From: Candidatus Zixiibacteriota bacterium
GTDB taxonomy: Bacteria > Zixibacteria > MSB-5A5 > UBA10806 > 4484-95
Direction: 5' to 3'
Length of the DNA: 40,047 nucleotides
NCBI GenBank assembly: GCA_021159005.1
Contig: JAGGSN010000031.1
Location: 1-40,047 of the forward strand
Part shown: piece by piece, positions 16,846 to 32,092 of the stretch
Layout: the number at the start of each line of letters is the position of its first letter
Numbering within the stretch: position 1 is the stretch's first letter
Notes under the pieces: model-generated
What the model was told of the DNA's origin: nothing
The model's input: the letters and a program-made list of their open reading frames with translations, nothing else
Database searches by the model: none
Position numbers and translations under genes: made by a program

Positions 16846-16861
16846 AATATTGAAATGATAG

Positions 16862-16965
16862 CTGGTGCACGAGGACGTACATCAGCCGCGAAATATGAGC
16901 GGCATCCGCCTATGACGGATGCCGTTCACGAGTCTTCTTCGCGTAGGGGCGTATTGCATACGCCC
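16862..16965. repeat. Palindromic repeat cluster downstream of the protease gene
   Basis: Three families sit side by side: a TGGTGCACGAGGACGTAC element (16862-16890), a GGCATCCGCC...GGATGCC palindrome (about 16900-16923), and GCGTAGGGGCGTATTGCATA at 16941-16965, whose arms form GGGCGTAT/ATACGCCC. They lie directly after the protease stop. The last element is in the gene's orientation but lacks a following T-tract, so terminator function is doubtful. Confidence 0.7.
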
Positions 16966-17021
16966 AATTAACACAGTTGGAAGGTGGTGTCAGAAGCTAC
17001 TTCTGACACGCGGCGATGATT

Positions 17022-18509
17022 TTAATCCCCGGTAAAGATAATATTGGCAATAAAGCCAAGGCAGATTAAACCGGATACATATATAAGCATAAAGTATGTA
17101 AACAGCCACGGATGTTTCCTTATAGCCCCTTTTCCAAAATTACTGACACTTATTTTCAGGCGGAAAAAGATTATCGCCGTATACATAGCAGCACAAATAA
17201 TATAATAGATGGAACTATTGTATCCTGATAAAATCTGATAATCTGTCCTCTTTAAAAAATCTATAGGATAAATGGATTCATTAAGTTTATTGAAACAAGT
17301 AATATTTAGTAATGTGAATATAAACAGCAATAAAAATGTCCACCAAAACACTTTTTCCTTGTTGTAACCATAGTTCCACCAGTGCACATTCCAATAATGA
17401 CCAATTGGAGTAAAAACATTCCACTGATTTTCTCTGCGTTGGTGCTCATATTTAAACTGGCGGTAATCGATATCGAGAATTTTGTAGCTTTCTTTTAAAC
17501 CGTCATCTTTAATCTTGTTTAATAGCTGCTCATAGATGCTGACTTTGTGGTCATAAGTTAGGCTATCGATAACCCAGATGCCTTTTTTATAAACGGTATC
17601 TATAACAGATTTCGCAGAGTCTATTCCGGTAATATCCAATGTTGAGGAAGTATCAATTTTAGCAATAATAGAATCTATTCCGGTAGAATTTTCATTAAAG
17701 ACTGAATCAGCAGGAAACCATAACTTAAAAAGATCCATTCGAAGTTTAATTTTGCTGATATCGGCATCAGCTAAAGCTATGAGGCATTTATTTGAATATC
17801 TGGGAGGTAAGCAGTATGTGAAATCTATCTCCCTACCAACATTTTTAACAAACCTGAAATCCATTGTGTCGGGTAAAATTGCTTTATAAAAGTTAGCTCC
17901 TTCTCGAAATACAGTATTTTCAAAATTGGCTTTGGAGTGAAAATAAGCAGACATAAAATCAGCTTCAGAATCAAATTTAGCATCTTTAAAATAAGCTAGC
18001 GAATAAAATATGGCATTTGAAAAAGATGCCTTTCAATTATATTCAGCAAATTGAAAATTAGCATCGAAATAAAATTTATCTCTTGCAAATATTGCATTAA
18101 ATCGAAAATGAGTGTTTCTAAAAACAGCGGTAGAATCAAATGTTACATTATAAAAAGATGCTTCTGATTTAAAATTAGATTTATAAAATGTAACTTCATT
18201 GCAAAATATAGCATCCTTAAAAATTACAAATGAATCAAATTTAGCAGACCAAAATTCAGCTTTAGAATTAAATTTTGCTCCTGTGAAACTTACAGGATAA
18301 TGAAAAATTACGGAATGCGAATATTTATTAAAATATAAAATTGAAGAATCAACCTCAACGCCCTCATGTGGGCTTTTTAGCCAGTAATTGTAATCAACTA
18401 ATTCATTAAATTCTTTGCCGGAATAGTCTATAGCAACTTGCGCCATAGCAGAAGCGCACCATAAGAATGTAAGGCTGAATATTACCAGAATTATCGCGAA
18501 TCGTTTCAT
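17022..18509 (-). pseudogene. Pentapeptide-repeat-like membrane protein gene interrupted by one in-frame TGA
   Basis: The first 158 codons encode a signal peptide (FAIILVIFSLTFLWCASAMA) and a repeat with aromatic residues alternately 5 and 6 positions apart (SEASFYNVTFDSTAVF, RFNAIFARDKFYFDANF). A TGA at 18033-18035 ends that frame, but the same frame continues without another stop for 336 codons. The 5/6 register is kept exactly across the TGA (AEYN, stop, KASFSNAIF, then AYFKDAKFDSEADF). The rest has a soluble region (WIDSLTYDH-like, QFKYEHQRRENQW) and three membrane helices near the C-terminus (VFWWTFLLLFIFTLL, YYIICAAMYTAIIFF, FMLIYVSGLICLGFI). Unbroken it would be about 495 residues. A single substitution or sequencing error is the simplest cause. 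Function unknown; no ribosome-binding site is evident at the ATG. Confidence 0.75.
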
Positions 18510-18742: not shown

Positions 18743-19126
18743 TCAACTGCGTCCTTCGAGCTTGGCATCATCGGCAGGCAGTCTATCCTTTTTGCGTTTG
18801 ATTGCCGCCCGAACGGCGCGCTCTGCCGGACCTTTACCCACTCCGGCAACATCGATTATTTTGTCAATGGCGCGGTCGAGCCAGTTCGACCAGTAAGCAT
18901 TCGGGAAACGCTCGGCAAAATAGTCGGTAACATCATCGGCGATTGTGAAAACATGCAAAGCAATCTGTCGAGCGCGGATGGTTTGCAGCAGCGGTATGAT
19001 ATATCTTTTCGTCAGCATGCCCACCGCGATTATCAATATCGCTCCCATCGCCTCGAAAGCGCGTTCGCTTAGAAAACCGCCGATGCCGCCAAATATACCG
19101 GCTTCGATTAATGTTATTTCATTCAT
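18743..19126 (-). CDS. Phage holin-like small membrane protein
   Basis: A 127-residue protein starting at the ATG preceded by AAAGGAGAAACA; a longer upstream reading lacks a binding site. An N-terminal amphipathic stretch is followed by one hydrophobic helix (MGAILIIAVGMLTKRYIIPL). An Ala-rich charged helix follows, then a C-terminus (DKIIDVAGVGKGPAERAVRA) ending in a basic tail. The pattern of one helix, a coiled segment and a short repeat near the C-terminus resembles LLH-type phage holins. A holin would permeabilise the inner membrane to release a lysin, but no lysin gene is visible nearby. It could equally be a structural membrane protein. It is the last gene of the island. Confidence 0.55.
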   Translation of the reverse strand: MNEITLIEAGIFGGIGGFLSERAFEAMGAILIIAVGMLTKRYIIPLLQTIRARQIALHVFTIADDVTDYFAERFPNAYWSNWLDRAIDKIIDVAGVGKGPAERAVRAAIKRKKDRLPADDAKLEGRS

Positions 19127-19171
19127 TGTTTCTCCTTTATGATATATTTTATGTCTCATTATGGAATAAAA

Positions 19172-19235
19172 AAGAGGGCGCATGCAATACGTCCCTACGT
19201 GAAGAAGGCGTATCCGCCATTGGCGGATTGCCCTG
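19172..19235 (-). terminator. Repeat-derived hairpin with T-tract between fibre-like and holin-like genes
   Basis: On the minus strand a GGGACGTATTGCATGCGCCC hairpin is followed by CTCTTTTTT. A second palindrome with CCGCCATTGGCGG lies just before it. It directly follows the stop of the 478-residue gene, so it may separate the holin-like gene from the upstream transcript or lower its expression. Confidence 0.55.
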
Positions 19236-19240
19236 CTAAT

Positions 19241-20677
19241 CTATTTAAGCTGCCAGCTTGCGCTGTCGGGCACATCTGTTTCGGTGCGGAATATTACGCC
19301 GGAATTATATTTTATGATAAATTGATATTTCGTGCTATCGCCGGATAATTTCGAGCAGGGTATTAAATCGATATACCAGTAGCCTGATGAATCGGTAGAG
19401 GTCGATTTGCAAAATGGCGTAATGATAAGGTCTGAATATTTCACCGGATGATAGGCTCGCGGAATCTCGGCGGCAACATCGACTCCATAAATATCCTCAC
19501 CGCTTATATCATACACCCAGCCGTATACGCGGCATAAGTCGGGATCTGATGGATTACCGGGGTCGAACTTTGTCATATACAAAGAATCGGTGCCGCCGCC
19601 TGAGGCTATTGCGATTGTATCCATAACCTGCTGGTAATTATTATGAGTTATCTCCACCCAGAAACTGTCGGCATCCAGTGCGAAAATTCTTTTGCCGTTA
19701 ACATCCGTAAGCAAGCCAGCCGCCTTTGCTGTCGATTGGTCAAGCGTTCTGATAGTAATCTTGGCGCTCTGAATCAATGTGCTGTCTGAGGCATCCAGCA
19801 CGATTAATGTTTCCGCCTCTGTGCCGCCGCCTGATAACGACAATGCCTCGATATCCTCATGGATAACCGTTAAGGTGTCGAACAGCGAATCAGGTAATGA
19901 GGCGGCTGCCGATATGGTTCCATCCGCGCTTATATCTATTGTAGTATCCTCATCGACACGAGCAAATTGATTGCTTATCATCATTGCCTTAATTGATGTG
20001 GTATCCGAACCGCCGCCTGCGCCTTGATAAATAAGCGAATCCTTCTTAACCGCTAATGTATCGCCTGTCGATACGGTATCACAAGCAACCACCGGCGTTG
20101 TCGAAGGGTCGAATGTCGAGAATCCGGTCGCCTTGTAATCTGCGGCATTGTTAGCCGTGTAGCTAATATCACCCGCCGATGAATCAACCAGCGCTACCTT
20201 GTCGCTGGACTCATCGAAAGTCGACAGCCCTGATACATCAGCTTTGCAGGACCCCGTGTCCGGCAATGCCAGTAAATCCCCGATACCAACATCATTGACA
20301 TAATAATTGCCGAAAGCAACCGTATGATAATTACTGCCGGTAATCGAAAGCGCATACCAAGTATAGCCGCCCAGACTGTCATCAGCCATTGCCGCCCGAT
20401 ATTTCTTCTCGAAGAATGCCGTTTCCGGCCAGTTTGCGCCAACCCTGTAAGCGGTATTAACCTCTATCGTATCGGTGTTGAATGATGAACCATTATAGGC
20501 TTGCACCACATACACCGTATCGAAATCATCGAGGATTGATTGACCATCGGTGTCGTACAAAAAGAACTGCACCACAAAGGTATCATCAATGCCTCCCGAA
20601 TTGTTGTCGTATATCAAGCCGCCCCATGCCGACGTAACCGATAGCAGGGTTATCAATATCATCAATATCTTTTTCAT
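19241..20677 (-). CDS. Secreted fibre-like protein of the capsid island
   Basis: A 478-residue protein with a clear Sec signal peptide (MKKILMILITLLSVTSAWG). The body has low-complexity beta-type sequence with paired GLSTFDESSDKVALV and GFSTFDPSTTPVVACD segments, a pattern I associate with environmental phage tail-fibre or structural proteins. The C-terminus resembles a carboxypeptidase-regulatory-like beta-sandwich (CRVYGWVYDISGEDIYGVDV). A signal peptide is unusual for a phage fibre and implies export before or apart from particle assembly. Its ATG overlaps the stop of the upstream 1194-residue gene as ATGA, with AAAGGAG inside the upstream coding sequence, so the two are translationally coupled. 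Function unknown. Confidence 0.75.
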   Translation of the reverse strand: MKKILMILITLLSVTSAWGGLIYDNNSGGIDDTFVVQFFLYDTDGQSILDDFDTVYVVQAYNGSSFNTDTIEVNTAYRVGANWPETAFFEKKYRAAMADDSLGGYTWYALSITGSNYHTVAFGNYYVNDVGIGDLLALPDTGSCKADVSGLSTFDESSDKVALVDSSAGDISYTANNAADYKATGFSTFDPSTTPVVACDTVSTGDTLAVKKDSLIYQGAGGGSDTTSIKAMMISNQFARVDEDTTIDISADGTISAAASLPDSLFDTLTVIHEDIEALSLSGGGTEAETLIVLDASDSTLIQSAKITIRTLDQSTAKAAGLLTDVNGKRIFALDADSFWVEITHNNYQQVMDTIAIASGGGTDSLYMTKFDPGNPSDPDLCRVYGWVYDISGEDIYGVDVAAEIPRAYHPVKYSDLIITPFCKSTSTDSSGYWYIDLIPCSKLSGDSTKYQFIIKYNSGVIFRTETDVPDSASWQLK

Positions 20678-23600
20678 CTTGGTCTCCTTTGCATATCTAT
20701 TACTCTTGACCGCCGCCCACCCGCTATGCTTTCCAGCGGCGTTAAGGTTATCTCCGGCAAGTCGCTTACTGTTTTCTCGATAGTTACAAGATCGAAAAAT
20801 ATATTACCCTGTGAATAGTTGCCGTAAATAATCAGTTTATCAAAAACCGTGATTGTATTATCGTTTTCAACAATAGTAGTGCCATCAACCCAAGCCGATA
20901 CGCCATCAGTATCTTGTATCGTTATTTTCAATTCATGGTACCTGGCATTCATAGCCTCCTTATCGCTGTCTGTCCAGCTCGAGGAATCGGAACTCCTATA
21001 TTTAAACATGCCGTTATTACGGGGAAACCCTACTCTAATATAGTCGTTGGCAGTGGTATCAAGAAGTTCGACATACGATATAAGTCCCGAACCGCCTCCA
21101 AACCATACATGAAAATAAATATTTCGATTGGATACATCAGTTCCAACCGACAACGTGCAGGCGGAGTATGTGCCGGTAATGACGCAGAACTGGTCGCCTG
21201 CCCAAACCTTGTTTATCTCCGCGCCGGTAAACAGCGAACTGTCTGATATGGATGCGAATATCTTGACACTATCCCCGCTCCAGCCATCGACACTGTCAAT
21301 CCAAGTATTCTCAGGTTTATTCTCGAAATTATCGTATCGCCCCCAGATACTGTCGGGTTCGGCAAACACCGAATCGGAACCCGGATTGCTCCAGTATATC
21401 TGCAAGACTCCGTTAGTCGGAGCGTTTTTATTGGCTAAAATATTTCCATAATTAAAAGCAGCGGCAATATCACCGGCATTATTCGAGGTGTCCATCTGGA
21501 ATGCCATAACCGGCACTCGCGGCAGTTCGTAATATGTATCTGTATAGCCGTTGTAATAAACAAAGTGAATATCATTGCCGGCACGCTGAAAATCGCCGTA
21601 GAGATGGTCTGGCCAGTAAATTACTTTTCTGCCCCTGCTATATACTATCGCCTTGCGAAAACCGCTTGGCGTATATCTATATGTGTTTATCCTGCCAGCT
21701 CCATAGCCGGAGTTTGCCGCTAAGTATTCACCAACCCATGCCATCGTATCGGCAGTGTTTAGCCCTGAACCTCTTAAGACAAACGGTTCGGCGGCGAAAT
21801 ACTCCCCGCGCGTGCCGGGGTCCGGTTTTGTCATGCCATAGATATAGACCTTATCCCCCTCGACTATCGGCGTTGAAACATGATGAATAGTATAAGAGTC
21901 AAAACCCGCTTCAGTTGTCAGGTTGGTAATTTCCCAACTGCTGTTTCGCCAGCGAACAAAATAAATATCGGATTCACGCCTTTGTCCAAGCGTATCGTAT
22001 TCCGTATAGACGATAATCGGCTTGTTGTCGCCATCAAGGCTTATGCCGTTGCCGTTGCCCATCAAGAACATTCGGGTAAGCGTATCAGCATCCGGCGTGC
22101 CGCAGACTGTTATCTTAGAGCAGGCGGCATAATCAACTGTGCTATCAGCTTTCAGCGTGTCGGTTGTCCAGCCTATCGGGTTTTGCGATTCCAGCTCATA
22201 CCATGTTTCGTAATAACCAGAATCCGCTCCGCTTGTTTCGATATCTGAATACATGCACGATATAGCCCGGCCATAACCAAGATTAGCATAGGAGTCATAC
22301 CAAAGCACAACTACCCACATGCGGTCATTGTTATCTATCATCGCCCCGACATTGTAAACCGATGGCGGAGTCAATTTGTAATCATGGTAATAAACAATAT
22401 ATTTTCTATCAGACCATGAACCCCAGCCCGAACCTGTATAAGGCAATTTAGCATAACAATAAGCCGCTCGCTTTAGATGCGATGCGAGAGGGTCGCCAAG
22501 AGAGGTATCGCACCTGTGCCGATAACTAATGAACAAGTCGCCATTTGAATTAGTCATAGGCGTTGAATAAGCTGATTGCCTAAAAGCGGCTGGTTCGGCA
22601 ACCGCTGTCCAGTTTGTTATATCAATGCCCGAACCGTTGACATGCCCGACGGTCGTTCGATAGTAATAAGCTCCGTGTTCCTGAACGCCATCATGACCGC
22701 GCCTCATTAAATGAAGCTTATGCTCAACAGGGTCTATCGTTATTTGCGGCATAAAGTGTTCGTCCCCATCAGTATTCATAACCGAATCGATATTGGTTTC
22801 CACACAATACGGGCTTGACCATGCGCCTGTCTCGTGATTGCGTTTGATTACATAAGCTCCCATATAGCCGGTCGAGGTATCGACTCCAAGATAAGCAACA
22901 TACGTAAAACTGTCATAATAAGCTATTTGCGTACAGCCGTTATGAAATGCTTTATTGACCATAGCATTATCGGCGATAATTTCACCATAGCCCGTGCGGA
23001 ATGGAACTTTAATCGGCTTATCCGCCCCGAGAACGCTGTGACTTGTGCCCAAGCAGATATTCTGTCTTCTCGTGCAGCTGGCTATATCCGCCCGAATATC
23101 GGTTGTATCCGGCCAGCCTTCAGGCGTTACTCCCTCAAAGGTTTGGTCGGCGCAGTAATCAAGGGTATCGCCATCAGTAGAGGCAAATCTTATCCGCCAA
23201 TGATATTGAATACAGCATTGAAGTGTTGAACCGCCATAAGTAATTTTACTGCATCGTTCATCGGTATAAAAAGTATCATTAAAGGCAGCCCAGCCCGGAT
23301 TCCATATATCAGAACCGCCTGCCGATGTGCCTACTTGTATCTGGTAATAATAACAACTATCGATGGCGCATACTGCCGAGAATTGCGGCGAATAATCAAC
23401 AAGCTGTTTTGGCGTTAATGTATCGGGATTAGCATAACCATAACCGGACGAACTCAATTGTTCCGAATACCATGTCGTAACTTTTGGCAAAGTCGGCGGA
23501 TTAGGCGTATGGTAATATATCTTGCCATAAGGACGCTGAGAGGCAGTATCGGCATATTCCGTTGACCGAAATTTCCACTTGCCTAAGCTGTCCGCTTCAT

Positions 23601-24258
23601 TATATAAACCCACAAGCGTAAAGCCGTAATTTGAATATGTCCCCTGATACCACTCATCGACCATATCGCCGATGTCAATTTTAATCCAGACCGCTTCACT
23701 GTCGGGGGTCAACACAAATTGTTCATAAACTGCAGTATCGCTTCTGTCCGTGCCGACACCATTACAGCCAGCGATAGTCCATTCGCTGTCGGGATAGCTG
23801 TAGTCATTCCAGCACACCGAACCAGTGCTGAAGGCAATACAAGCTCCGCCCTGTGCCCAGTTCCTCATTATTCGGCAGGGATAATATGGCATGGATGCCG
23901 CCCCTGAACATGCCGGTCTTACATAATAATCATGACAGTATAAATAGATGAACGCCGAATCAATCACCTTGCCGGCTGGTATATCGCCAATGTTTGTAAT
24001 CTTGATAAACGGTCTAATCCAGTTAAGCCTGTTGGATACATTGCAAGACGAATCCTCATCATTACCCAGTATAAAATATTCGCACGTGCCCCAGCTGTTA
24101 TTAGAATTGTTGGGATAAGATGAACTTAAATACTGTCCGCAAGCGTCATCAATATCGGTCGAATCAACATTCAGCGAATCCGCCCACACATACGCATCAT
24201 GCGAACTCGACATTGCCAGAAGTATAAGCAGTATTTTAATTATCAAAAGTTTTTTCAT
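20674..24258 (-). CDS. Large secreted multidomain protein (DNRLRE-like, BNR propeller-like, LamG/DUF2341-like)
   Basis: A 1194-residue protein with a signal peptide (MKKLLIIKILLILLAMSSS). Residues about 25-250 resemble the DNRLRE/CBM96-type beta-domain (IDSAFIYLYCHDYY, GKIYYHTPNPP). An FN3-like region follows (about 255-380), then a BNR_4-like propeller (about 410-900; EHFMPQITIDPVEHKLHLMR, NSNGDLFISYRHR, LDGDNKPIIVYTEY). The C-terminal domain is LamG/concanavalin-like (WGRYDNFENKPENTW, RYHELKITIQDTDGVSAWVD). It probably binds glycans or surfaces outside the cytoplasm. There are many cysteines, consistent with an exported protein. AAAGGAAAAAT precedes the ATG. It sits downstream of the adaptor-like gene after a 200-base gap with a terminator-like repeat, and is coupled to the next gene. 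Confidence 0.78.
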   Translation of the reverse strand: MKKLLIIKILLILLAMSSSHDAYVWADSLNVDSTDIDDACGQYLSSSYPNNSNNSWGTCEYFILGNDEDSSCNVSNRLNWIRPFIKITNIGDIPAGKVIDSAFIYLYCHDYYVRPACSGAASMPYYPCRIMRNWAQGGACIAFSTGSVCWNDYSYPDSEWTIAGCNGVGTDRSDTAVYEQFVLTPDSEAVWIKIDIGDMVDEWYQGTYSNYGFTLVGLYNEADSLGKWKFRSTEYADTASQRPYGKIYYHTPNPPTLPKVTTWYSEQLSSSGYGYANPDTLTPKQLVDYSPQFSAVCAIDSCYYYQIQVGTSAGGSDIWNPGWAAFNDTFYTDERCSKITYGGSTLQCCIQYHWRIRFASTDGDTLDYCADQTFEGVTPEGWPDTTDIRADIASCTRRQNICLGTSHSVLGADKPIKVPFRTGYGEIIADNAMVNKAFHNGCTQIAYYDSFTYVAYLGVDTSTGYMGAYVIKRNHETGAWSSPYCVETNIDSVMNTDGDEHFMPQITIDPVEHKLHLMRRGHDGVQEHGAYYYRTTVGHVNGSGIDITNWTAVAEPAAFRQSAYSTPMTNSNGDLFISYRHRCDTSLGDPLASHLKRAAYCYAKLPYTGSGWGSWSDRKYIVYYHDYKLTPPSVYNVGAMIDNNDRMWVVVLWYDSYANLGYGRAISCMYSDIETSGADSGYYETWYELESQNPIGWTTDTLKADSTVDYAACSKITVCGTPDADTLTRMFLMGNGNGISLDGDNKPIIVYTEYDTLGQRRESDIYFVRWRNSSWEITNLTTEAGFDSYTIHHVSTPIVEGDKVYIYGMTKPDPGTRGEYFAAEPFVLRGSGLNTADTMAWVGEYLAANSGYGAGRINTYRYTPSGFRKAIVYSRGRKVIYWPDHLYGDFQRAGNDIHFVYYNGYTDTYYELPRVPVMAFQMDTSNNAGDIAAAFNYGNILANKNAPTNGVLQIYWSNPGSDSVFAEPDSIWGRYDNFENKPENTWIDSVDGWSGDSVKIFASISDSSLFTGAEINKVWAGDQFCVITGTYSACTLSVGTDVSNRNIYFHVWFGGGSGLISYVELLDTTANDYIRVGFPRNNGMFKYRSSDSSSWTDSDKEAMNARYHELKITIQDTDGVSAWVDGTTIVENDNTITVFDKLIIYGNYSQGNIFFDLVTIEKTVSDLPEITLTPLESIAGGRRSRVIDMQRRPR

Positions 24259-24286
24259 ATTTTTCCTTTGTTTAAGGCTGATGCAG

Positions 24287-24327
24287 AAAAAAGGGCGTAT
24301 CCGTCTGAGGCGGACACCCCTACGCGT
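24287..24327 (-). terminator. Repeat-derived hairpin with T6 upstream of the secreted-protein pair
   Basis: On the minus strand GGGGTGTCCGCC...GGATACGCCC forms a long stem followed by TTTTTT. It lies after the adaptor-like gene and 29 bases before the ATG of the 1194-residue gene. If it works, it would cut the capsid-type genes off from the two secreted-protein genes, which would then need their own promoter or readthrough. Confidence 0.5.
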
Positions 24328-24458
24328 TACGATTTTGTAATACCCAATATTATTAAGAAATTACTATCATAAGACTTTTAGCAATAGCCCCGGCCTTCAA
24401 TCAGGATGCGGCTTTGAAAAAAGCCGTCTATTGAATCACCTTATCCAATAACGCCGGA

Positions 24459-25271
24459 TTACGCTTTCGAGGGCGCTTTTAAACCGCCCATAGAACCGGT
24501 AAATTTCTCCAGCAGTAAATAAGCATCATGCTTATACTGATCTGTCAGAACAGACCATGATGCACATGAGCTTTTATTAGTCATAGATGACAGCGTTTGC
24601 AATGCCTTAATCCGGCAGATTATCGAAACCGCCAAGTAGGTCTCGGCAATAACCAGCGATTTATCAGATGAGGAAGCAAAAGCCGAATCGATGTAATTCA
24701 GTATCTGTTCGTTCGCCTCATTGATGGCATTGTTAATTGTCTGCTCGTCAAGTTCCGAATACTCGGAAATGTAATCTATATAAACAAGCTGGCAAGCTTC
24801 GATATCGCCGGAGCTAAGCCGAGTGATTTCGCCATTGGCATAGTCGATGCTGAAATCGGCTCCGCGCTCATACACTCGATACGGCATATACCAAACCGAT
24901 ACAACCGCTTCCGGCGCAATATCGCCCGAGCTTATTCGGATTAATGCGCCTTTGTTGTAATCAACGGTGTAATCCAGGTTCTCTCTGTAAATTTGACCGA
25001 GTGAACTGTCGGAAGCGACCACTACCGAATCCCGCAACAAGTCGGATTTATCGAGAGCGGCTTTATCGCTGACTGGAAATATTATCGCTTCATAATCAGG
25101 TTTATTTTGCTCTTTAGCCTTTACTTTCTCGGATGCGCTCTGCACCGGCGGATATTTGAGTTTCGCCGGTGTACCCGCTATCAGCTTTACCGGTTCTGAG
25201 TAAACCTGGCCGACAGATATGCGGTTTTCGATGATATGTTTTTTAACAATTTCTACTGTTGTAAAACTCAT
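24459..25271 (-). CDS. Head-tail adaptor-like protein of the capsid island
   Basis: A 270-residue protein. The N-terminal part has VEIVKKHIIENRISVGQVY and a beta-rich section holding two copies of a short module: LDYTVDYNKGALIRISSGDI and DFSIDYANGEITRLSSGDI. The C-terminal third is helical (LDEQTINNAINEANEQIL, VIAETYLAVSIICRIKAL) with the look of gp6/gp15-type head-tail connectors, which join a portal to the tail. The start overlaps the upstream stop as ATGA. No portal gene is present. The connector assignment rests on motif recall and position, not an alignment. Confidence 0.55.
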   Translation of the reverse strand: MSFTTVEIVKKHIIENRISVGQVYSEPVKLIAGTPAKLKYPPVQSASEKVKAKEQNKPDYEAIIFPVSDKAALDKSDLLRDSVVVASDSSLGQIYRENLDYTVDYNKGALIRISSGDIAPEAVVSVWYMPYRVYERGADFSIDYANGEITRLSSGDIEACQLVYIDYISEYSELDEQTINNAINEANEQILNYIDSAFASSSDKSLVIAETYLAVSIICRIKALQTLSSMTNKSSCASWSVLTDQYKHDAYLLLEKFTGSMGGLKAPSKA

Positions 25272-25654
25272 GGCAAATCTATCTCCATTATTAGCAGGTC
25301 AACCAAGCCATGCTTGGCTAAGCCCGAAACCGAATCCTGACCGCAAGCAATCTTGAAATGATTTTCGGATGACTCTCCAACTAAAAAACAATGAGCCTGA
25401 TTGCGCGGGATTATTATCACAACCGGGTTTGCTATCAGAGATGGCAAACTGTTGCCGCTGGCATCTTCCAAATCGCTAAAGCTGATTAACTGATCACTGC
25501 CGCCTAATCTGCTGTGCAAAAATACTACTCTTTTCGAGGAGCTTTCCTCAACCATCACAAACTGAGCATCAAATGAATCAGCATTGCCCCAGACAACGAC
25601 ATTTGGAACATGCCATTTGCGATTGCTTTTTAAATGATTTAAGGTAATGTTCAT
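25268..25654 (-). CDS. Small protein of unknown function, coupled to propeller and adaptor genes
   Basis: A 128-residue protein starting at the ATG that overlaps the upstream stop as ATGA, with GGGGAG four bases before it. A longer reading into the upstream gene is not needed. It is beta-rich (VPNVVVWGNADSFDAQFVMV, NPVVIIIPRNQAHCFLVG) without membrane helices or signal peptide. Its place between two structural-type genes and ATGA coupling at both ends suggest a virion or particle component made in step with them. I do not recognise the family. Confidence 0.7.
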   Translation of the reverse strand: MNITLNHLKSNRKWHVPNVVVWGNADSFDAQFVMVEESSSKRVVFLHSRLGGSDQLISFSDLEDASGNSLPSLIANPVVIIIPRNQAHCFLVGESSENHFKIACGQDSVSGLAKHGLVDLLIMEIDLP

Positions 25655-27084
25655 TTTACTCCCCTTGCGGCTGTAAGATAATCTGATGATGGAACTGCCA
25701 TTATCTGAGTTCCCACCGGTGATATGGTAAAGGCAGCTGTTGTTCGAGTCCTTATCCAGAAGTAGTTTTTGGCATTGACCGAACTGCTCTGCCAATTATC
25801 AGGAGTCGAATCGAGATCGTTCCAGAGATATATGGTTTCGTTTAGTTCATCGAAATTACACCCGCCCGATACCGGCGTGAATGACTGCCAATCGTCGCCA
25901 TCGAAATATTCCCAGACAACAGTACCGCCGCTTCCCGCCGTGGATAGGATTATCGAAAGGCAAAAGAATTTTTCCTCCATGCCAACATACAGGCAGTCAT
26001 CAACGGCATCTATCAGGGCATTGGATGATGAATGGTAGATGTCGGCAGTATTTGTATTTGCGGCGGCTGAGGTTTTATCATCAAATGAGTCGTCCGAATT
26101 ATCAAACAGCAAGACTCTATGGCAAAGACCAATTCCGCTGATAAGATTGCCGGCAGTAAAATTTTCACCGTCTTTATAAGCATAACGCGGCAGAAAGCGG
26201 TCGCTGCCAACATCCTTAACATAAAATATAAACGGCGTATTTCGATTAAATAAGACTTGAGGAGCTTTTGCTTTTTCATCAGCGGCTTGCAATAACCCGC
26301 TGAAATTGACACCGTCATATTCGCGGTAATATACTATGCCCGCAGATGACGGACATGCTGCAATGCCGAGCTTTTGATCATCTGACACCGCGCAGTCGAA
26401 CTCCGCATCGATATAGCTGCTGTTAAGAAGCGCAATCGCTGAATCCCAACTGCCGCTTAAGCCGTCTCTTCTTCTGAAAGATAGGTTTGACCTATTTTGC
26501 GAATACACGGCATATAAATCACTGCCTATAAAATTCAGGTTTACATAAGGCATCTCGTTGGATGAACCCGAAAGCTCCGCGCCGGTATCCGATGGGCCTG
26601 TGCCCCAGATTGTGCCCGTGTCGGATGATTTAATTCTGATATGATAATCTTCTTCGGCGGAATCATAGCAGGCAAAAGCGCACCACAGCTTGCCGCTTTC
26701 CGCGCGCGCGATAACCGGATAATAAGCCGATTCGACATTTAATACGGTTGCCGGCGAACTTATATACCACGTCCCGGCAGAAAACGCCAGTTTGAAAAAG
26801 ACTATATCCAGCGTCGTTTGCTTAATGTAGACGACATATATATTGCCATCGCGGTCGATACAGGCAGAGAAAGGATAATCGGCCGAATCGCTTCGCAAAG
26901 TAATCGGATTAGACCAGTTGTTGTAGGGATAGTCTGCCCATCTAAACTCGATTTCGCTTGATGACTTGCCATACAAACAGGCAAGCCGGCCGGCGTAGGC
27001 GCCATAGTCCAGCCTCAATAATTTCCGTTGCGGCGATACGCCTGTTGGTATTGAGGCTGTTGATGTATCAATTAATTTATGCAT
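25651..27084 (-). CDS. Beta-propeller (sialidase-like fold) protein with C-terminal structural domain
   Basis: A 477-residue protein without signal peptide. Residues about 20-330 are a series of blades with strand patterns such as IDRDGNIYVVYIKQTTLDIV, SGKLWCAFACYDSAEEDYHI and GSDLYAVYSQNRSNLSFRRR, as in BNR/sialidase-like propellers. I see no full set of sialidase catalytic residues. The C-terminal part (VWEYFDGDDWQSFTPVSGG, YFWIRTRTTA) resembles a small domain found in phage baseplate and tail proteins. It lies between the capsid and adaptor-like genes, where head-completion genes are usual. No Shine-Dalgarno is seen at the ATG. Function unknown; particle decoration or adhesion is possible. 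Confidence 0.7.
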   Translation of the reverse strand: MHKLIDTSTASIPTGVSPQRKLLRLDYGAYAGRLACLYGKSSSEIEFRWADYPYNNWSNPITLRSDSADYPFSACIDRDGNIYVVYIKQTTLDIVFFKLAFSAGTWYISSPATVLNVESAYYPVIARAESGKLWCAFACYDSAEEDYHIRIKSSDTGTIWGTGPSDTGAELSGSSNEMPYVNLNFIGSDLYAVYSQNRSNLSFRRRDGLSGSWDSAIALLNSSYIDAEFDCAVSDDQKLGIAACPSSAGIVYYREYDGVNFSGLLQAADEKAKAPQVLFNRNTPFIFYVKDVGSDRFLPRYAYKDGENFTAGNLISGIGLCHRVLLFDNSDDSFDDKTSAAANTNTADIYHSSSNALIDAVDDCLYVGMEEKFFCLSIILSTAGSGGTVVWEYFDGDDWQSFTPVSGGCNFDELNETIYLWNDLDSTPDNWQSSSVNAKNYFWIRTRTTAAFTISPVGTQIMAVPSSDYLTAARGVK

Positions 27085-27390
27085 GATATTTTATACAGAG
27101 ACAAACATTACAGCGGGTCGAAAATATGATAATAATATGCAAGGTTCGCGTAGGGTCGTCCGCCATTGGCGGATACGTCCCCTGGTTACCAGGCAGCGCT
27201 TGGCAACCAAAGCTAAAAGTTCGCGTAGGGGCATATTGAATACGCCCTCTTTTATTATTCAGTCAGGTCGTAACGAAACGCAACCAGCCTGCTAACTGCC
27301 TTGTCGGGTTTCTCCCTTTGGTCGGAACTCGACCTACGCGCTTTTAAAATACATAACCGCAAAATAACGCTTGTCTCTGCGATTCCTTTC
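27085..27390. repeat. Gap between capsid and propeller genes, filled with palindromic repeats
   Basis: About 306 bases without a gene. A composite unit at 27146-27210 joins the GTCGTCCGCCATTGGCGGAT palindrome to a GGTTACCAGG...CTTGGCAACC palindrome. A second GCGTAGGGGC element with ATATTGAATACGCCC and TTTT lies at 27221-27254. A degenerate TCAGGTCGTAACGAAACG piece lies near 27263, and a GTCGGGTTTC...ACTCGAC element at 27303-27333. The GCGTAGGG-type elements here are oriented against the capsid genes. Confidence 0.75.
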
Positions 27391-28506
27391 TTAGCTGTAG
27401 TTTATATCCAGAACTAATGAGGCATCCTCGATGATTTTCGCATATGCCACCGATTCGGAGATAACAGCCTCCTCTAAATGCTGCTCGATAACTTTGTCAT
27501 ACTCGATAGTCAGCGGTTGGGAGAAAATTTCCTCCACAGCGAATCGGTTGTCGAGGCCAACTACATTATCATTGGGAACCTCATCACAGCGGACTAAGGT
27601 TGCGCCCAGCGGCGAGGTGATTTCGCCTGAATTTAAGAATTTGAAGCCTATCATCGGGTCTTTAAATTCGCTGATATTCAGGATGGTTTTAATTACGCTT
27701 CCATGGCAAGCCATCACATTGGGCTGATAGGGGAAAAACTCGTTGAAGAAGTCAACCATGTCATCATAATCGAGCGTGCCGGAAACATCGGTAGTTTTCA
27801 CCGCTGCGGCATTGTTGTTGCCATCGCCGTTGATGATAGTATCAACCGCTAAGGCGACGCGGTCAGAGGCCAGACGGTAGCCGATATACCACAACAGCAC
27901 CTTGAACTGCGCCATTGTCCGATGTCTTAACGCCTTGTATGAAACCTTGAGGTTTAGCCCGTAATCGGGGATAACGATTGTATTAGCCTGGTCGGTTACC
28001 AAAATCGAGGGCACATCCGATACCTCGCCGACTGGCCTAAGCGACAAATCGGAATCGGCGGCACTGGTATCGATATGGAACGGCGTATATCGGGAGGTAT
28101 TCACTCCTGAGGTTGCGGCGATAAGACGGTTAAGTTCGGGACGCATATTCTGGCCGCGCTTGATTTCCCGCATCATGAATTCGGGCATCAAAGCCGAAGC
28201 GGCGCGGTAAAACAACTCGACCGTTACCGGATTTCTGCCGCCGGTTCGCAAGCCATGATATGCCAGCTGACGCTCGAAAGCATCCAAAGGCGAACCGGCC
28301 GGGGATGGATCATACTCCGGCAGTTCCAATAACTCCGAAAGCGACAAGCCTCTTTGCTGAGCATCCAGATAAAAATCTTTATCGACTTTGACATTAGCAG
28401 TCTGCGATAAGTCTGCCTGGCCAATTGCCGTCCCATCGGCAAACTTATCGTTGATTGCCGCGGGCATCATGTTGTTCATAAATATATTTGAGTCTATTTG
28501 GTTCAA
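27391..28506 (-). CDS. HK97-fold major capsid protein
   Basis: A 371-residue protein. An N-terminal region of about 95 residues (LDAFERQLAYHGLRTGGRNP) precedes the core, as in capsid proteins with a delta-like or scaffolding arm. The core shows the usual order: PEFMMREIKRGQ, a strand-rich stretch ending IVIPDYGLNLKVSYKALRHR, the long spine-like helix AQFKVLLWYIGYRLASDRVA, then INGDGNNN and a C-terminal beta-rich axial-type domain (LGATLVRCDEVPNDNVVGLD). The neighbouring prohead protease and decoration-like gene agree. The start is TTG, with AAGGAG six bases upstream; no ATG is well placed before codon 10. Expected to form an icosahedral shell; what it packages is unknown because no terminase or portal is seen. 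Confidence 0.8.
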   Translation of the reverse strand: MNQIDSNIFMNNMMPAAINDKFADGTAIGQADLSQTANVKVDKDFYLDAQQRGLSLSELLELPEYDPSPAGSPLDAFERQLAYHGLRTGGRNPVTVELFYRAASALMPEFMMREIKRGQNMRPELNRLIAATSGVNTSRYTPFHIDTSAADSDLSLRPVGEVSDVPSILVTDQANTIVIPDYGLNLKVSYKALRHRTMAQFKVLLWYIGYRLASDRVALAVDTIINGDGNNNAAAVKTTDVSGTLDYDDMVDFFNEFFPYQPNVMACHGSVIKTILNISEFKDPMIGFKFLNSGEITSPLGATLVRCDEVPNDNVVGLDNRFAVEEIFSQPLTIEYDKVIEQHLEEAVISESVAYAKIIEDASLVLDINYS

Positions 28507-28542
28507 TGTATTCTCCTTTTTAAATGTATATGATTATTATTT

Positions 28543-28606
28543 CACGTAGGATCGTCCGTCTCAGGCGGACACCCTCTTGTTGCCAAGCAGCGCTTGGTAA
28601 CAAGAG
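28543..28606. repeat. Composite two-palindrome repeat unit
   Basis: CGTAGGATCGTCCGTCTCAG with its partner arm GGCGGACACC is joined directly to CTCTTGTTGCCAAGC...GCTTGGTAACAAGAG. It is the same two-part unit as at 27146-27210 and 37382-37447. It lies just upstream of the capsid gene's ribosome-binding site. Confidence 0.75.
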
Positions 28607-28645
28607 GAATGTATTCTCCTTTTATTAATGTATACGATTACTATT

Positions 28646-28790
28646 GCGCGTAGGGGCGTATTGAATATGCCTTCAGGTTTTTGACAAATGATTATTTGTT
28701 GGAATTTCTATAATGATATTGAAATTCACATAAACGCAGCGCGTAGGGGCGTCCGCCTCAGGCGGATACGCACTATTGCATACGCCCTCG
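28646..28790. repeat. Further palindromic repeats between decoration and capsid genes
   Basis: GCGTAGGGGCGTATTGAATA lies at 28646-28671. A longer element at 28739-28790 nests GTCCGCCTCAGGCGGAT inside GCGTAGGGGC and a GCATACGCCC end. Both are in plus orientation, opposite to the island genes, and neither is followed by a good T-tract in that direction. Confidence 0.7.
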
Positions 28791-28798
28791 AAATCTAT

Positions 28799-29218
28799 CT
28801 ACAAGATGAGCGTAACTTCGCTGGTGCCGTTAATGTCAATTACCGTTCCGCGGGCGACATTGCCGCCGGCGGGGTCGTTGCCCGTCAAGGCAGGCGCCTG
28901 CTTAACAGACCCGGAACCATTGATCACAACCCGGTTGCCTACCGAGGGCACTGTAGATACGGCAGGCAATGTCATTACGCCGGCAATTTGCACTGTGGCA
29001 ACACGCTTGCCGTTGTCAGCATCGGTGAGCGATAAATCGACAAGCTTGCCAAGTAGCATGCCGCCATCGGCACCCGGGCCAACCTGATAATCGTCAAGTA
29101 TAGCTACAGCCTTGCCAATATCAGCATCGGCAAGGTCATCGCTGCTGGCGGTTTGGTGAATCTCGAAAGCGGCATAAACTGCTCCGATTGTTTCGAGGTT
29201 TTTATCTCTTATAGTCAT
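28799..29218 (-). CDS. Capsid decoration / cement-like protein
   Basis: A 139-residue beta-rich protein with repeated Gly-Lys/Arg-Val steps (DADIGKAVAILDDYQVGPG, LTDADNGKRVATVQIAGVM, VPSVGNRVVINGSGSV, NVARGTVIDINGTSEVTLIL). Small size, beta pattern and place immediately before the capsid gene fit DUF2190-type or similar head-decoration proteins that stabilise HK97 shells from outside. AAAAGGAGAAAAA precedes the ATG. There is no signal peptide. The family assignment is by pattern and position. Confidence 0.65.
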   Translation of the reverse strand: MTIRDKNLETIGAVYAAFEIHQTASSDDLADADIGKAVAILDDYQVGPGADGGMLLGKLVDLSLTDADNGKRVATVQIAGVMTLPAVSTVPSVGNRVVINGSGSVKQAPALTGNDPAGGNVARGTVIDINGTSEVTLIL

Positions 29219-29307
29219 TTTTTCTCCTTTTAAAAATTGTCTGTGATTTTTTGAAGATGATTTGTAAGTTGGTGCACACGGACGTAATAGAATGTTGGTG
29301 CACGGGG

Positions 29308-29434
29308 ACGTACACCAACCACGATAAGTGGCTCACGGGGACGTACACCAACCACGATAAGTGGCTCACGGGAACGTACACCAACCACGATAAGTGGCTC
29401 ACGGGAACGTACACCAACCACGATATCTTATGCT
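29308..29434. repeat. 33-bp tandem repeat array, about 3.5 to 4 units
   Basis: Units containing ACGTACACCAACCACGATAA and then GTGGCTCACGGG repeat with a period of exactly 33 bases from 29308, 29341, 29374 and 29407. Copies differ by GGGG versus GGGA before ACG. The unit core ACGTACACCAACCAC is shared with single dispersed elements at 231-257 and elsewhere, so the array looks like local amplification of that element. The 33-base period is a multiple of three, which keeps several frames open; these are not genes. Confidence 0.85.
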
Positions 29435-29442
29435 TTATTTGA

Positions 29443-29475
29443 CTCTTGTTGCCAAGCGCTGCTTGGCAACAAGAG
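29443..29475. repeat. 33-bp near-perfect palindrome, CTCTTGTTGCCAAGC family
   Basis: CTCTTGTTGCCAAGC and GCTTGGCAACAAGAG form 15-base arms around a 3-base centre. It sits just after the stop of the scaffold-position gene on the minus strand. Relatives occur at 27182-27210, 28574-28606, 33134-33158 and 37415-37447. A hairpin could act in RNA processing or termination, but no T-tract follows. Confidence 0.75.
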
Positions 29476-29481
29476 AACTGC

Positions 29482-29889
29482 TTAATGATAATCTTCCGGT
29501 TTTTGAGATTGATTTTGATTAGCGACGCCGATAGACTTAAAAGACCTTGTACGTCCTTTGAAAACGTTTTCTATAGCCTGATTGATTTCCGTTTGAAGCG
29601 TCTTCAACTGCTCGTAATTCAGAGACTCGGTCTCAATTAGCATTTCCGCCTGTGAAATTAAGGGATTTCCCGCCGCTTTTAGGGCTTTGATTTTCTGTTT
29701 CATTTCGGTAATGACATCCGCTGTCAGCTTTTCGCCCAGTTTTAAAGCCGGTGATGTATTTTGCAGAAACGATTTTGTCTCGCGCAAGATAATGCTGATA
29801 TTATCGAGATTTAAAAAACCTTTCTGCGGCGCAGATTCTATTGCCGCGCCAGCGCTTTCAAGCCCGGATATGCACTCATCTATTTTCAA
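29482..29889 (-). CDS. Helical protein in the scaffold position of the capsid island
   Basis: A 135-residue protein from a TTG start with AAAGGAG seven bases upstream; an ATG 11 codons earlier lies deeper in the preceding gene without a binding site. It overlaps the preceding gene by 14 bases. It is rich in predicted helix and charged residues (ADVITEMKQKIKALKAAG, ETESLNYEQLKTLQTEINQA) with a Gln/Asn-rich tail. Placed between protease and capsid genes, it could be a scaffolding protein, which guides shell assembly and is then cleaved. No sequence motif proves this. Confidence 0.6.
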   Translation of the reverse strand: MKIDECISGLESAGAAIESAPQKGFLNLDNISIILRETKSFLQNTSPALKLGEKLTADVITEMKQKIKALKAAGNPLISQAEMLIETESLNYEQLKTLQTEINQAIENVFKGRTRSFKSIGVANQNQSQKPEDYH

Positions 29890-30163
29890 TGGCTGACTCC
29901 TTTCGATTAATATTGACCTCAATGCGGCTCAAGCGAATTATAATATCCTCCCTAAGCTCAAAAAAATCTTCCTTAGTGGCAAAATTTTCAGCCAGCCTTA
30001 TTTCAAGATTGGAAATCCTTTTATCGAGACTGGCGACGAATTTCTCCTCGGCTTTATTAGCCATATCAATTTTTATCCCGTCAATTGTCGTGTAATAAGT
30101 AGATAATGCCGCTAAAACCGCGATAACAATTGAAACAATATAATTACGGCAGCGATTCCACAT
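29876..30163 (-). CDS. Membrane-anchored coiled-coil protein
   Basis: A 95-residue protein with one N-terminal membrane helix (IVSIVIAVLAALSTYY) and then a heptad-patterned charged region (SLDKRISNLEIRLAENFATK, FFELREDIIIRLSRIEVNIN) likely to form a coiled coil. It starts three bases after the protease stop, with AAGG seven bases before the ATG, and overlaps the next gene. A membrane-anchored protein between protease and scaffold-position genes is not standard in HK97-like head modules. It might tether assembly to the membrane, but that is speculation. Confidence 0.7.
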   Translation of the reverse strand: MWNRCRNYIVSIVIAVLAALSTYYTTIDGIKIDMANKAEEKFVASLDKRISNLEIRLAENFATKEDFFELREDIIIRLSRIEVNINRKESAIENR

Positions 30164-30166
30164 AAC

Positions 30167-30928
30167 TTAGCCTTTCTTTCTAACAAGCAGAAAATTACCG
30201 CCGTTCAAACACGCTCTGAAGCCCTCAATATTTTGAGATATTACAGGGCTGTTCACAATGTGATGAGCCGGAGTAAATGTATAGCATTTGCTTGATTCTT
30301 TGCCATTGGAAAACGCAGCGGACGAGGAATGATTTTTGCCGAAAGCAAGTTGATTAGTCAGCATTGTATCTGGTATCGAACCTCGATAAACTAACGATGT
30401 TTCCAGAATTTTATCCACCTCACGATAATAAAACGAGATGTCCTTGGAAACTTGGTGTCCGCAATTGCGAATATCTTTCCCGCAGGCAGAACATTCGGGG
30501 AAGCCGTAGGTAAAGCTTACAGAGCATTCCTTGTAAATACCCGAATCGATATTCAGCCTGAGTTTCTCTGCGCCTTCTGCTTTTTTAAGCCAATAAAAGT
30601 AGGTTTTTATCCATAGTCTGTCGTTTTTTTCCACTGTTTCAGCCCAGAAATTTCTCGCTATGGGCAAACCGCTTTTATCATGACCAATTAAAACCGGCGA
30701 ATCGATAAAAAGCTTAGCCATTGAGGGTAAATCCGCCCGGTCGAACTGTCCGCCATAAGAATTGACACTATCGCTGATAATATACATCGCTCTTATAATC
30801 ACCTCAGAAACAGTTACCGGCGTAGGCGGCTTGATATTTTTGTTGATTAAATCGATGTAGCGTTGAAGATTGCTGTTTACCACCGAGGTTGAAAGCTCGG
30901 CGGTTTGTTGTGTGCTTATAATTTTCAT
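30167..30928 (-). CDS. HK97-type prohead protease with zinc-knuckle insertion
   Basis: A 253-residue protein from the ATG preceded by AGGAGAGTTT; an earlier in-frame ATG 12 codons upstream has no binding site. It shows the U35-type pattern: VLIGHDKSGLPIARNFWAE with H83 as likely catalytic His, then DRLWIKTYFYW, then GIYKECSVSFTYG with S136 (S in CSVSF, equivalent to LSxGF) as likely nucleophile. A C-x2-C-x6-C-x-H motif follows at once (CSACGKDIRNCGH), suggesting a bound zinc. Prohead proteases cleave scaffold and capsid termini during shell maturation. It is the first gene of the island; terminase and portal genes, usually just upstream, are absent. Confidence 0.75.
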   Translation of the reverse strand: MKIISTQQTAELSTSVVNSNLQRYIDLINKNIKPPTPVTVSEVIIRAMYIISDSVNSYGGQFDRADLPSMAKLFIDSPVLIGHDKSGLPIARNFWAETVEKNDRLWIKTYFYWLKKAEGAEKLRLNIDSGIYKECSVSFTYGFPECSACGKDIRNCGHQVSKDISFYYREVDKILETSLVYRGSIPDTMLTNQLAFGKNHSSSAAFSNGKESSKCYTFTPAHHIVNSPVISQNIEGFRACLNGGNFLLVRKKG

Positions 30929-31246: not shown

Positions 31247-32092
31247 ATGAAAAAAATTACAATTTTAGCAGCAACCCTGGTTTTTACCGGCGGAATGATG
31301 CTTATAGCTAACGCCTCCCCTGATTATATAATTCATAACCATTTTGGCGTAGGCGATTTATATACTAACAACAACACCGACCCAATGAGTACTTTTGCGA
31401 TGAGTTGGAACCCTCTTACCGGTAATTATATGACAGATGATTGGGGCACCGACGGCACCGCGCCATCTCCGGGGCCAAATTATTTTGTATCGGAGGTTTT
31501 CGACCTTGAGGCGATGTATCTTGATGTTGATTATGATGCCGATCAAGTATCATTTTCGATTGTTACTTCCATGCCAAATGACGGTTTTGACGGCGTTTCG
31601 TGGTATCCCGGTTACGTTTTCCGCGCCGGCGATGTCCGCTTCAATATTGGCGATGACCTTTTTGTTCTGGGAACCTACGATAGCCCCTCAGGAGAAAACC
31701 ACTACGGCAACATGTATTATAATCCTGAAATGACTTATACCGATAGTTATCGCGGATATAATATTGATAACCCGGTTCTGGCTGAGGGCAATGCTATCAA
31801 CCAAGTGGGATCACTGTCATCTTCTTCGTTCAATTATTGCGAATATCTTGATGATAACAGCACCAGTTTAATGGAAAACGGCTTCAGCACTTATCTTATT
31901 GAAGGCACTGTATCGTTTGCTGATTTCGGATATGATTTACTTGATGAAGATGCTTTCAGCATGTCTCTTGGGATGAGCTGCAATAACGATGTAGGCACTC
32001 TTTCGATAGCGCCGGTTCCCGAACCTGCCACAATCGCACTTTTGGGACTTGGTTTGCTCGGACTTTACGCTGGAAAGCGCCGCAAGAAATAA
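31247..32092 (+). CDS. PEP-CTERM domain surface protein
   Basis: A 281-residue protein with signal peptide (MKKITILAATLVFTGGMMLI, cleavage near ANA) and a C-terminal sorting signal: VPEPATIALLGLGLLG followed by GKRRKK. PEP-CTERM tails are recognised by exosortase at the membrane; no exosortase gene is in this window. The body is acidic, Gly/Asn/Asp-rich and has no recognised enzymatic motif (NHFGVGDLYTNNNTDP, YPGYVFRAGDVRFNIGDDLF resemble other PEP-CTERM extracellular proteins). It is probably exported and linked to extracellular matrix. It is a single-gene unit with its own sigma-54 promoter and terminator. Confidence 0.9.
   Translation: MKKITILAATLVFTGGMMLIANASPDYIIHNHFGVGDLYTNNNTDPMSTFAMSWNPLTGNYMTDDWGTDGTAPSPGPNYFVSEVFDLEAMYLDVDYDADQVSFSIVTSMPNDGFDGVSWYPGYVFRAGDVRFNIGDDLFVLGTYDSPSGENHYGNMYYNPEMTYTDSYRGYNIDNPVLAEGNAINQVGSLSSSSFNYCEYLDDNSTSLMENGFSTYLIEGTVSFADFGYDLLDEDAFSMSLGMSCNNDVGTLSIAPVPEPATIALLGLGLLGLYAGKRRKK

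What the first reader, a model, noticed from the sequence alone, without database searches (positions are those of the whole stretch)
18743..30928. Capsid-type gene island without terminase, portal or tail genes
Eleven minus-strand genes run from a prohead protease through scaffold-position, decoration-like, HK97-fold capsid, propeller and adaptor-like genes to two secreted proteins and a holin-like protein. Terminase and portal genes normally sit just upstream of the protease; here a PEP-CTERM gene with its own promoter does. No tape measure, tail tube, baseplate, lysin, integrase or replication gene is visible. Most frames look intact, which is unexpected for a decaying prophage. A domesticated shell, a gene-transfer-agent head module or a satellite using parts encoded elsewhere are all possible.
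Basis: partly seen in the sequence, partly recalled or inferred. Interest (0 to 1): 0.88.

Follow-up and report, generated by a model that had tools for sequence, protein, structure and literature searches.

The report
Phylum-wide domesticated phage head system
Bacteria across the uncultured phylum Zixibacteria carry one inherited copy of a phage-derived DNA-packaging head, split over separate chromosomal sites and kept under selection, which looks like a so far undescribed gene transfer agent rather than a dying virus.

Summary
The gene island is real: capsid, decoration, scaffold-position and prohead-protease genes plus a beta-propeller, an adaptor candidate, two secreted proteins and a holin-like protein. 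The 'missing' portal and terminase are not missing from the cell. Single intact copies lie on another contig of the same genome (C153), and in two sister genomes of the same family they sit just upstream of the protease. The modules have separated by rearrangement, repeatedly in the phylum (up to about 1.3 Mb apart in one-contig genomes). The capsid is single-copy in 111 of 132 Zixibacteria genomes (73 of 78 good ones). All 14 host families with two or more members are monophyletic in its tree, and all Zixibacteria capsids form one clade apart from viruses (nearest free relative about 35% identical). Terminase ATPase and nuclease residues and the protease His/Ser are invariant; capsid dN/dS is 0.01-0.07. 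Sheath and tape-measure genes are sporadic (9/132 each) and were not found in this genome. Best reading: a vertically inherited, DNA-packaging, GTA-like viriform without a recognisable long tail. Gene content, conservation and inheritance are shown; expression, packaging of host DNA and transfer are inferred.

The parts
30167..30928 (-). prohead-protease-type gene (family C1); His95/Ser148 (numbered from the 265-aa ORF) plus Cys/His knuckle; lacks the DNA-ligase extension of some relatives
   Evidence: phrog_16951 5.4e-14; invariant His, Ser 37/37; viral family members hit S78 models weakly
29876..30163 (-). small membrane-anchored coiled-coil protein (family H), function unknown, possible lysis or assembly factor
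   Evidence: conserved in 26 loci at this position; TM segment by eye
29482..29922 (-). scaffold-position protein (family C2)
   Evidence: position and conservation between protease and decoration gene; no profile match above noise
28799..29218 (-). decoration-type virion protein (family G)
   Evidence: phrog_4588 virion structural protein 3.7e-6; homologues in viral loci at the same position
27391..28506 (-). HK97-type major capsid protein (family E)
   Evidence: phrog_3922 1.1e-60; 111/132 genomes of the phylum
25651..27084 (-). beta-propeller protein (family A), candidate tail nozzle or receptor-binding protein
   Evidence: AlphaFold pLDDT 93; best PDB match LME-1 phage portal-tail complex chain, 4e-11, then PLL/PHL lectins
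25268..25654 (-). small conserved protein (family F), function unknown
   Evidence: conserved in 27 loci next to D
24459..25271 (-). adaptor/connector candidate (family D): beta domain plus C-terminal helix bundle
   Evidence: model pLDDT 87; weak PDB match to a phage baseplate chain; homologue next to TerS-like K, TerL and portal in viral record L281
20674..24258 (-). large secreted protein in the variable slot between D and B
   Evidence: N-terminal signal-like segment; weak Ig_Rha78A_N and CBM96 matches below cut-off
19241..20677 (-). secreted fibre-like protein (family B)
   Evidence: conserved in 37 loci, signal-like N-termini in most by eye
18743..19126 (-). small membrane protein, holin-like (family L)
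   Evidence: conserved in 19 loci as last gene of the run; no profile match

Best explanation
This is the head module of a GTA-like viriform fixed in the phylum Zixibacteria: a tailed-phage relative captured once before the phylum diversified and inherited vertically since. Inferred working: under some host signal a few cells express both loci; capsid, scaffold-position protein, decoration protein and protease build a prohead on the portal; TerS-like K and TerL, encoded at a separate locus, pump in DNA; because the genes lie at distant sites a particle cannot carry the whole element and would carry host DNA; the adaptor candidate, propeller and secreted fibre-like proteins form a short neck/tail or adhesion layer; the small membrane proteins help release. 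Shown: gene content, conservation, invariant catalytic residues, vertical inheritance, physical splitting. Inferred: expression, packaging of host DNA, release and transfer.
For: Single-copy capsid in 111/132 genomes, 73/78 of the good ones; TerL 115/132, portal 112/132, both in the window's genome on C153. Host families monophyletic in capsid, portal and TerL trees. Zixibacteria capsids one clade against 73 viral ones, SH-aLRT 99. Invariant Walker A, DE and nuclease Asp in TerL, profile matches solved TerL domains. Capsid dN/dS 0.013-0.07. Modules about 91 kb, 0.41 Mb and 1.3 Mb apart in one-contig genomes G114, G079, G107. Shared host neighbours across families. Prophage tail markers sporadic: sheath 9/132, tape measure 9/132, none in own genome.
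Against: No recognisable tail, endolysin or regulator was identified, so delivery is unexplained. No expression or particle data. G010, a one-contig genome, has no detectable TerL and its propeller is in two frames; G027 has a broken capsid, so some lineages may have lost function. Integrases and lysins were not searched genome-wide. Host congruence was judged by family labels, not by a host tree built here.
Confidence: 0.7

Rival explanations
1. A domesticated protein compartment or surface structure: the shell is used without DNA, as in encapsulins, or as a secreted shell decorated with secreted proteins.
For: No tail genes; secreted proteins in the cluster; head module often apart from the packaging module.
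Against: Portal and TerL kept in nearly all genomes with invariant catalytic residues and one-clade, host-congruent trees.
Confidence: 0.1
2. An ancient provirus of Zixibacteria that can still be induced and spreads as a virus, but is seen mostly as a resident copy.
For: Phage-type head and packaging genes intact; relatives at about 35% occur in IMG/VR contigs with tail genes.
Against: Single copy, host-congruent trees, no near-identical free contigs in IMG/VR beyond one carrying the island (L172), modules up to 1.3 Mb apart.
Confidence: 0.07
3. A phage-derived delivery or antagonism device, in which the head and secreted proteins act on other cells but gene transfer is not the selected function.
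For: Lectin-like propeller; secreted fibre-like proteins; protease fused to a DNA ligase domain in some lineages.
Against: No toxin or effector recognised in the conserved cluster; ligase domain absent in the window's copy.
Confidence: 0.08
4. A decaying prophage remnant.
For: Island lacks packaging and tail genes locally; single lineages show broken genes (G010, G027).
Against: Frames open and dN/dS far below 1; phylum-wide retention.
Confidence: 0.03

Closest known systems
Gene transfer agents as viriforms: RcGTA-like (alphaproteobacterial type I), BaGTA (type II), Brachyspira BhGTA (Kogay et al. 2022, PMC9662315)
   Same: Phage-derived capsid, protease, portal and TerL; endogenized over more than one locus; vertical inheritance with host; no self-packaging as one unit expected
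   Different: Other phylum; no recognisable long tail; secreted proteins in the cluster; protease fused to a DNA ligase domain in some lineages; no experimental evidence of particles or transfer
Tailed phages with phrog_3922-type capsids (IMG/VR relatives L173-L251, 25-35% identity)
   Same: Order portal - protease - scaffold-position - decoration - capsid; protease-ligase fusion and secreted genes also in L173/L174
   Different: L174 carries distal tail, sheath and other tail-position genes; the Zixibacteria copies do not have them nearby and form a separate clade
Encapsulins (HK97-fold nanocompartments, PMC8346489)
   Same: HK97-type shell protein kept by a cell
   Different: Here portal, TerL and protease are kept; no cargo enzyme identified

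Membership tests
Gene transfer agent (criteria of PMC9662315) | Uses caudoviricete-derived proteins to form particles (sequence similarity is accepted as evidence) | tested here: met
   capsid, portal, TerL matches; particles themselves not seen
Gene transfer agent (criteria of PMC9662315) | Mostly encapsidates random host DNA | not testable with these tools
   needs particles
Gene transfer agent (criteria of PMC9662315) | Genome fully endogenized, often across multiple loci | tested here: met
   C31 and C153 in own genome; separate places in one-contig genomes
Gene transfer agent (criteria of PMC9662315) | Element not fully packageable in its own head | tested here: inconclusive
   head size unknown; a distance of up to 1.3 Mb between modules makes joint packaging implausible
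Gene transfer agent (criteria of PMC9662315) | Mostly vertical inheritance, co-diversifying with hosts | tested here: met
   15 label changes of a minimum of 15 in the capsid tree, 14 of 14 in portal and TerL trees; host side is family labels, not a host tree
Gene transfer agent (criteria of PMC9662315) | Packaged DNA delivered to other cells | not testable with these tools
   experimental
Encapsulin | HK97 shell working without portal and terminase (own knowledge of the family) | tested here: not met
   portal and TerL conserved alongside the capsid in the phylum
Prophage (inducible provirus) | Contiguous element with mobility and replication genes, patchy occurrence | tested here: not met
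   split modules, near-universal single copy; integrase not searched genome-wide
Siphovirus or myovirus virion | Tape-measure or sheath gene | tested here: not met
   PF10145 and L174 sheath absent from own genome, 9/132 each in the phylum; other tail families not searched

The most novel reading that the evidence does not exclude
An ancestral, phylum-wide gene transfer agent of Zixibacteria, captured once before the phylum diversified: a head-and-packaging machine without a recognisable long tail, delivering DNA through propeller and secreted fibre-like proteins, with a protease-DNA ligase fusion in some lineages.
Probability: 0.5. Interest if true: 0.9.

Novelty: new variant of a known kind. 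Interest (0 to 1): 0.82.

Why it matters
The three GTA groups classified with an established genetic basis lie in alphaproteobacteria and spirochetes (PMC9662315). A capsid, portal and terminase kept in nearly every member of an uncultured phylum would be a further independent exaptation of a phage, at phylum depth, and could give Zixibacteria a built-in route for gene exchange. It also shows that packaging genes 'missing' from a capsid island can sit elsewhere in the genome, so such islands are easily misread as decaying prophages; one copy is filed as a virus in IMG/VR (L172).

Tried and rejected
Absence of terminase and portal: rejected. The Pfam TerL_ATPase model PF03354 missed the genome's TerL; an alignment from relatives found it. 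Contractile tail encoded elsewhere: tested with the L174 sheath, sporadic only. Long-tail tape measure: PF10145 sporadic only. PDB sequence searches with capsid and portal profiles: nothing. Pfam on portal members: nothing meaningful. Foldseek of D: one weak phage baseplate match, not decisive. Literature joining Zixibacteria with GTA or capsid protein: none in the held library. PMC11237797 was read as a lead and proved irrelevant.

Full report
Observation. The window is the whole of contig C31 (40047 bases) of a 3.66 Mb genome in 241 contigs. ORF listing gives a co-directional minus-strand run from 30928 to 18743. Profile searches identify the capsid (phrog_3922, 1.1e-60), a decoration-type virion protein (phrog_4588) and a protease family (phrog_16951); the other genes have no confident family. 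The island is real and the capsid call is secure. The protease call rests on family, position and invariant His95 and Ser148 (37 of 37 sequences); viral members of the family give sub-threshold matches to prohead-protease models.

Where the terminase and portal are. Forty stretches of up to 20 kb from 39 relatives were read around the capsid. In G112 and G111, of the window's own family, a portal-like gene (J), a small gene K and a TerL-like gene (I) lie upstream of the protease. In G112 a PEP-CTERM gene on the other strand stands between TerL and protease, as it stands beside the protease in the window. J matches phrog_3753 portal (1.3e-31); I matches phrog_2 TerL and Pfam Terminase_6N. The TerL alignment shows invariant GNRWGKS, DE and nuclease aspartates, and its profile matches solved TerL nuclease and ATPase domains. 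K is called TerS-like from position and a Cys/His-plus-helix pattern seen by eye; no profile supports it. Searching the phylum finds TerL in 115 of 132 genomes and portal in 112. In the window's genome both lie on contig C153 (portal 12595-13806, TerL 16176-17483) with several kilobases of other genes on either side, and the window has about 9 kb of other genes upstream of the protease, so the split is not a contig break. One-contig genomes show the same: capsid and TerL are about 91 kb apart in G114, 0.41 Mb in G079 and 1.3 Mb in G107.

Inheritance and selection. The capsid is found in 111 of 132 genomes of the phylum and 73 of 78 of those at least 90% complete; the few second hits are pieces of one broken or divided gene. 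Named records are nearly all Zixibacteria MAGs, a few with other labels. In the capsid tree all 14 host families with two or more members are one side of a branch: 15 label changes against a minimum of 15. The portal and TerL trees reach their minimum of 14 as well, although in the portal tree family f10 counted alone needs two changes. Host family labels, not a host tree built here, are the standard. The 53 Zixibacteria capsids form one clade (SH-aLRT 99) against 73 viral capsids, with shorter tips; long viral branches leave the nearest virus uncertain. The only close IMG/VR contig (L172, 56%) carries the same island; the next is at 35%. Nei-Gojobori dN/dS is 0.013-0.07 for the capsid and below 0.3 for the other genes where dS is not saturated; many pairs are saturated. 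Many loci in families f7 to f10 share the same downstream host genes (N, O, M), and TPR gene P lies by the portal in several families and in the window's genome.

What the other genes suggest. Family A folds as a beta-propeller with pLDDT 93. Its best PDB match is a chain of the LME-1 phage portal-tail complex, followed by PLL/PHL lectins, so nozzle and receptor-binding roles are both open. D has a beta domain and a C-terminal helix bundle with only weak structural matches, but in viral record L281 it lies next to K, TerL and portal. B and the variable gene before it begin with signal-like segments in most lineages, read by eye, which is unusual for virion genes. L174, a relative at 35%, shows the same habit and in addition carries a distal tail protein and a sheath. 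The L174 sheath finds matches in only 9 of 132 Zixibacteria genomes, and the PhageMin_Tail tape-measure model in 9; neither is in the window's genome. The protease is fused to an ATP-dependent DNA ligase domain in G110, G108 and in L173/L174, with KYDG present in f15/f16 members; the window's copy lacks it.

Interpretation. Terminase and portal with invariant active residues under purifying selection mean DNA packaging is probably retained. Single copy, host-congruent trees and physical splitting argue against a virus. Against the published GTA criteria (PMC9662315), caudoviricete ancestry, multi-locus endogenization and co-diversification are met; incomplete self-packaging is likely but inconclusive; packaging of random host DNA and delivery could not be tested. 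It works like a GTA as far as sequence can say; it is not filed as a proven one.

Limits. The data are mostly metagenome-assembled genomes. There are no expression data. Integrases, lysins, regulators and most tail families were not searched genome-wide. The distribution outside the phylum is not resolved: 401 genome stretches matched and only the best 80 are shown.

Noticed in passing
L041:4410-6614, L039:10680-12932, L173:1759-4158, L174:1-2136: Prohead-protease-type proteins fused to an ATP-dependent DNA ligase domain (PF01068, E 1e-25 to 1e-30), in two Zixibacteria families and in a viral-contig relative; KYDG motif intact in L039-L041.
   Followed up: partly
L070 and L071 (G027:C1 2322220 and 1725325): In a one-contig genome the capsid gene is in two pieces 600 kb apart that overlap by about 40 residues: rearrangement or misassembly.
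   Followed up: no
L046, L076 (G010): One-contig 2.1 Mb genome has capsid and portal but no detectable TerL, and its propeller gene is in two frames: possible loss of function in one lineage, or sequence error.
   Followed up: no
window 17022-18509 (-): Two genes just after the island, one a pentapeptide-repeat protein (PF13576, 2.6e-11), the other with a membrane region; not conserved with the island.
   Followed up: no
L072:14690-15532: A secreted protein with CBM96 and Por_Secre_tail sorting domain sits between K and TerL in the packaging locus of the window's own genome.
   Followed up: no
window 31247-32092 and homologues (family R): A PEP-CTERM gene on the opposite strand recurs near the island in nine loci of several host families.
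   Followed up: no
L112, L124, L131, L153, L157: Records titled Ignavibacterium, Thermoplasmata, Calditrichota, Flavobacteriaceae or Calditrichaeota carry capsids at Zixibacteria-level identity (55-60%), so they are probably mislabelled or contaminated.
   Followed up: no
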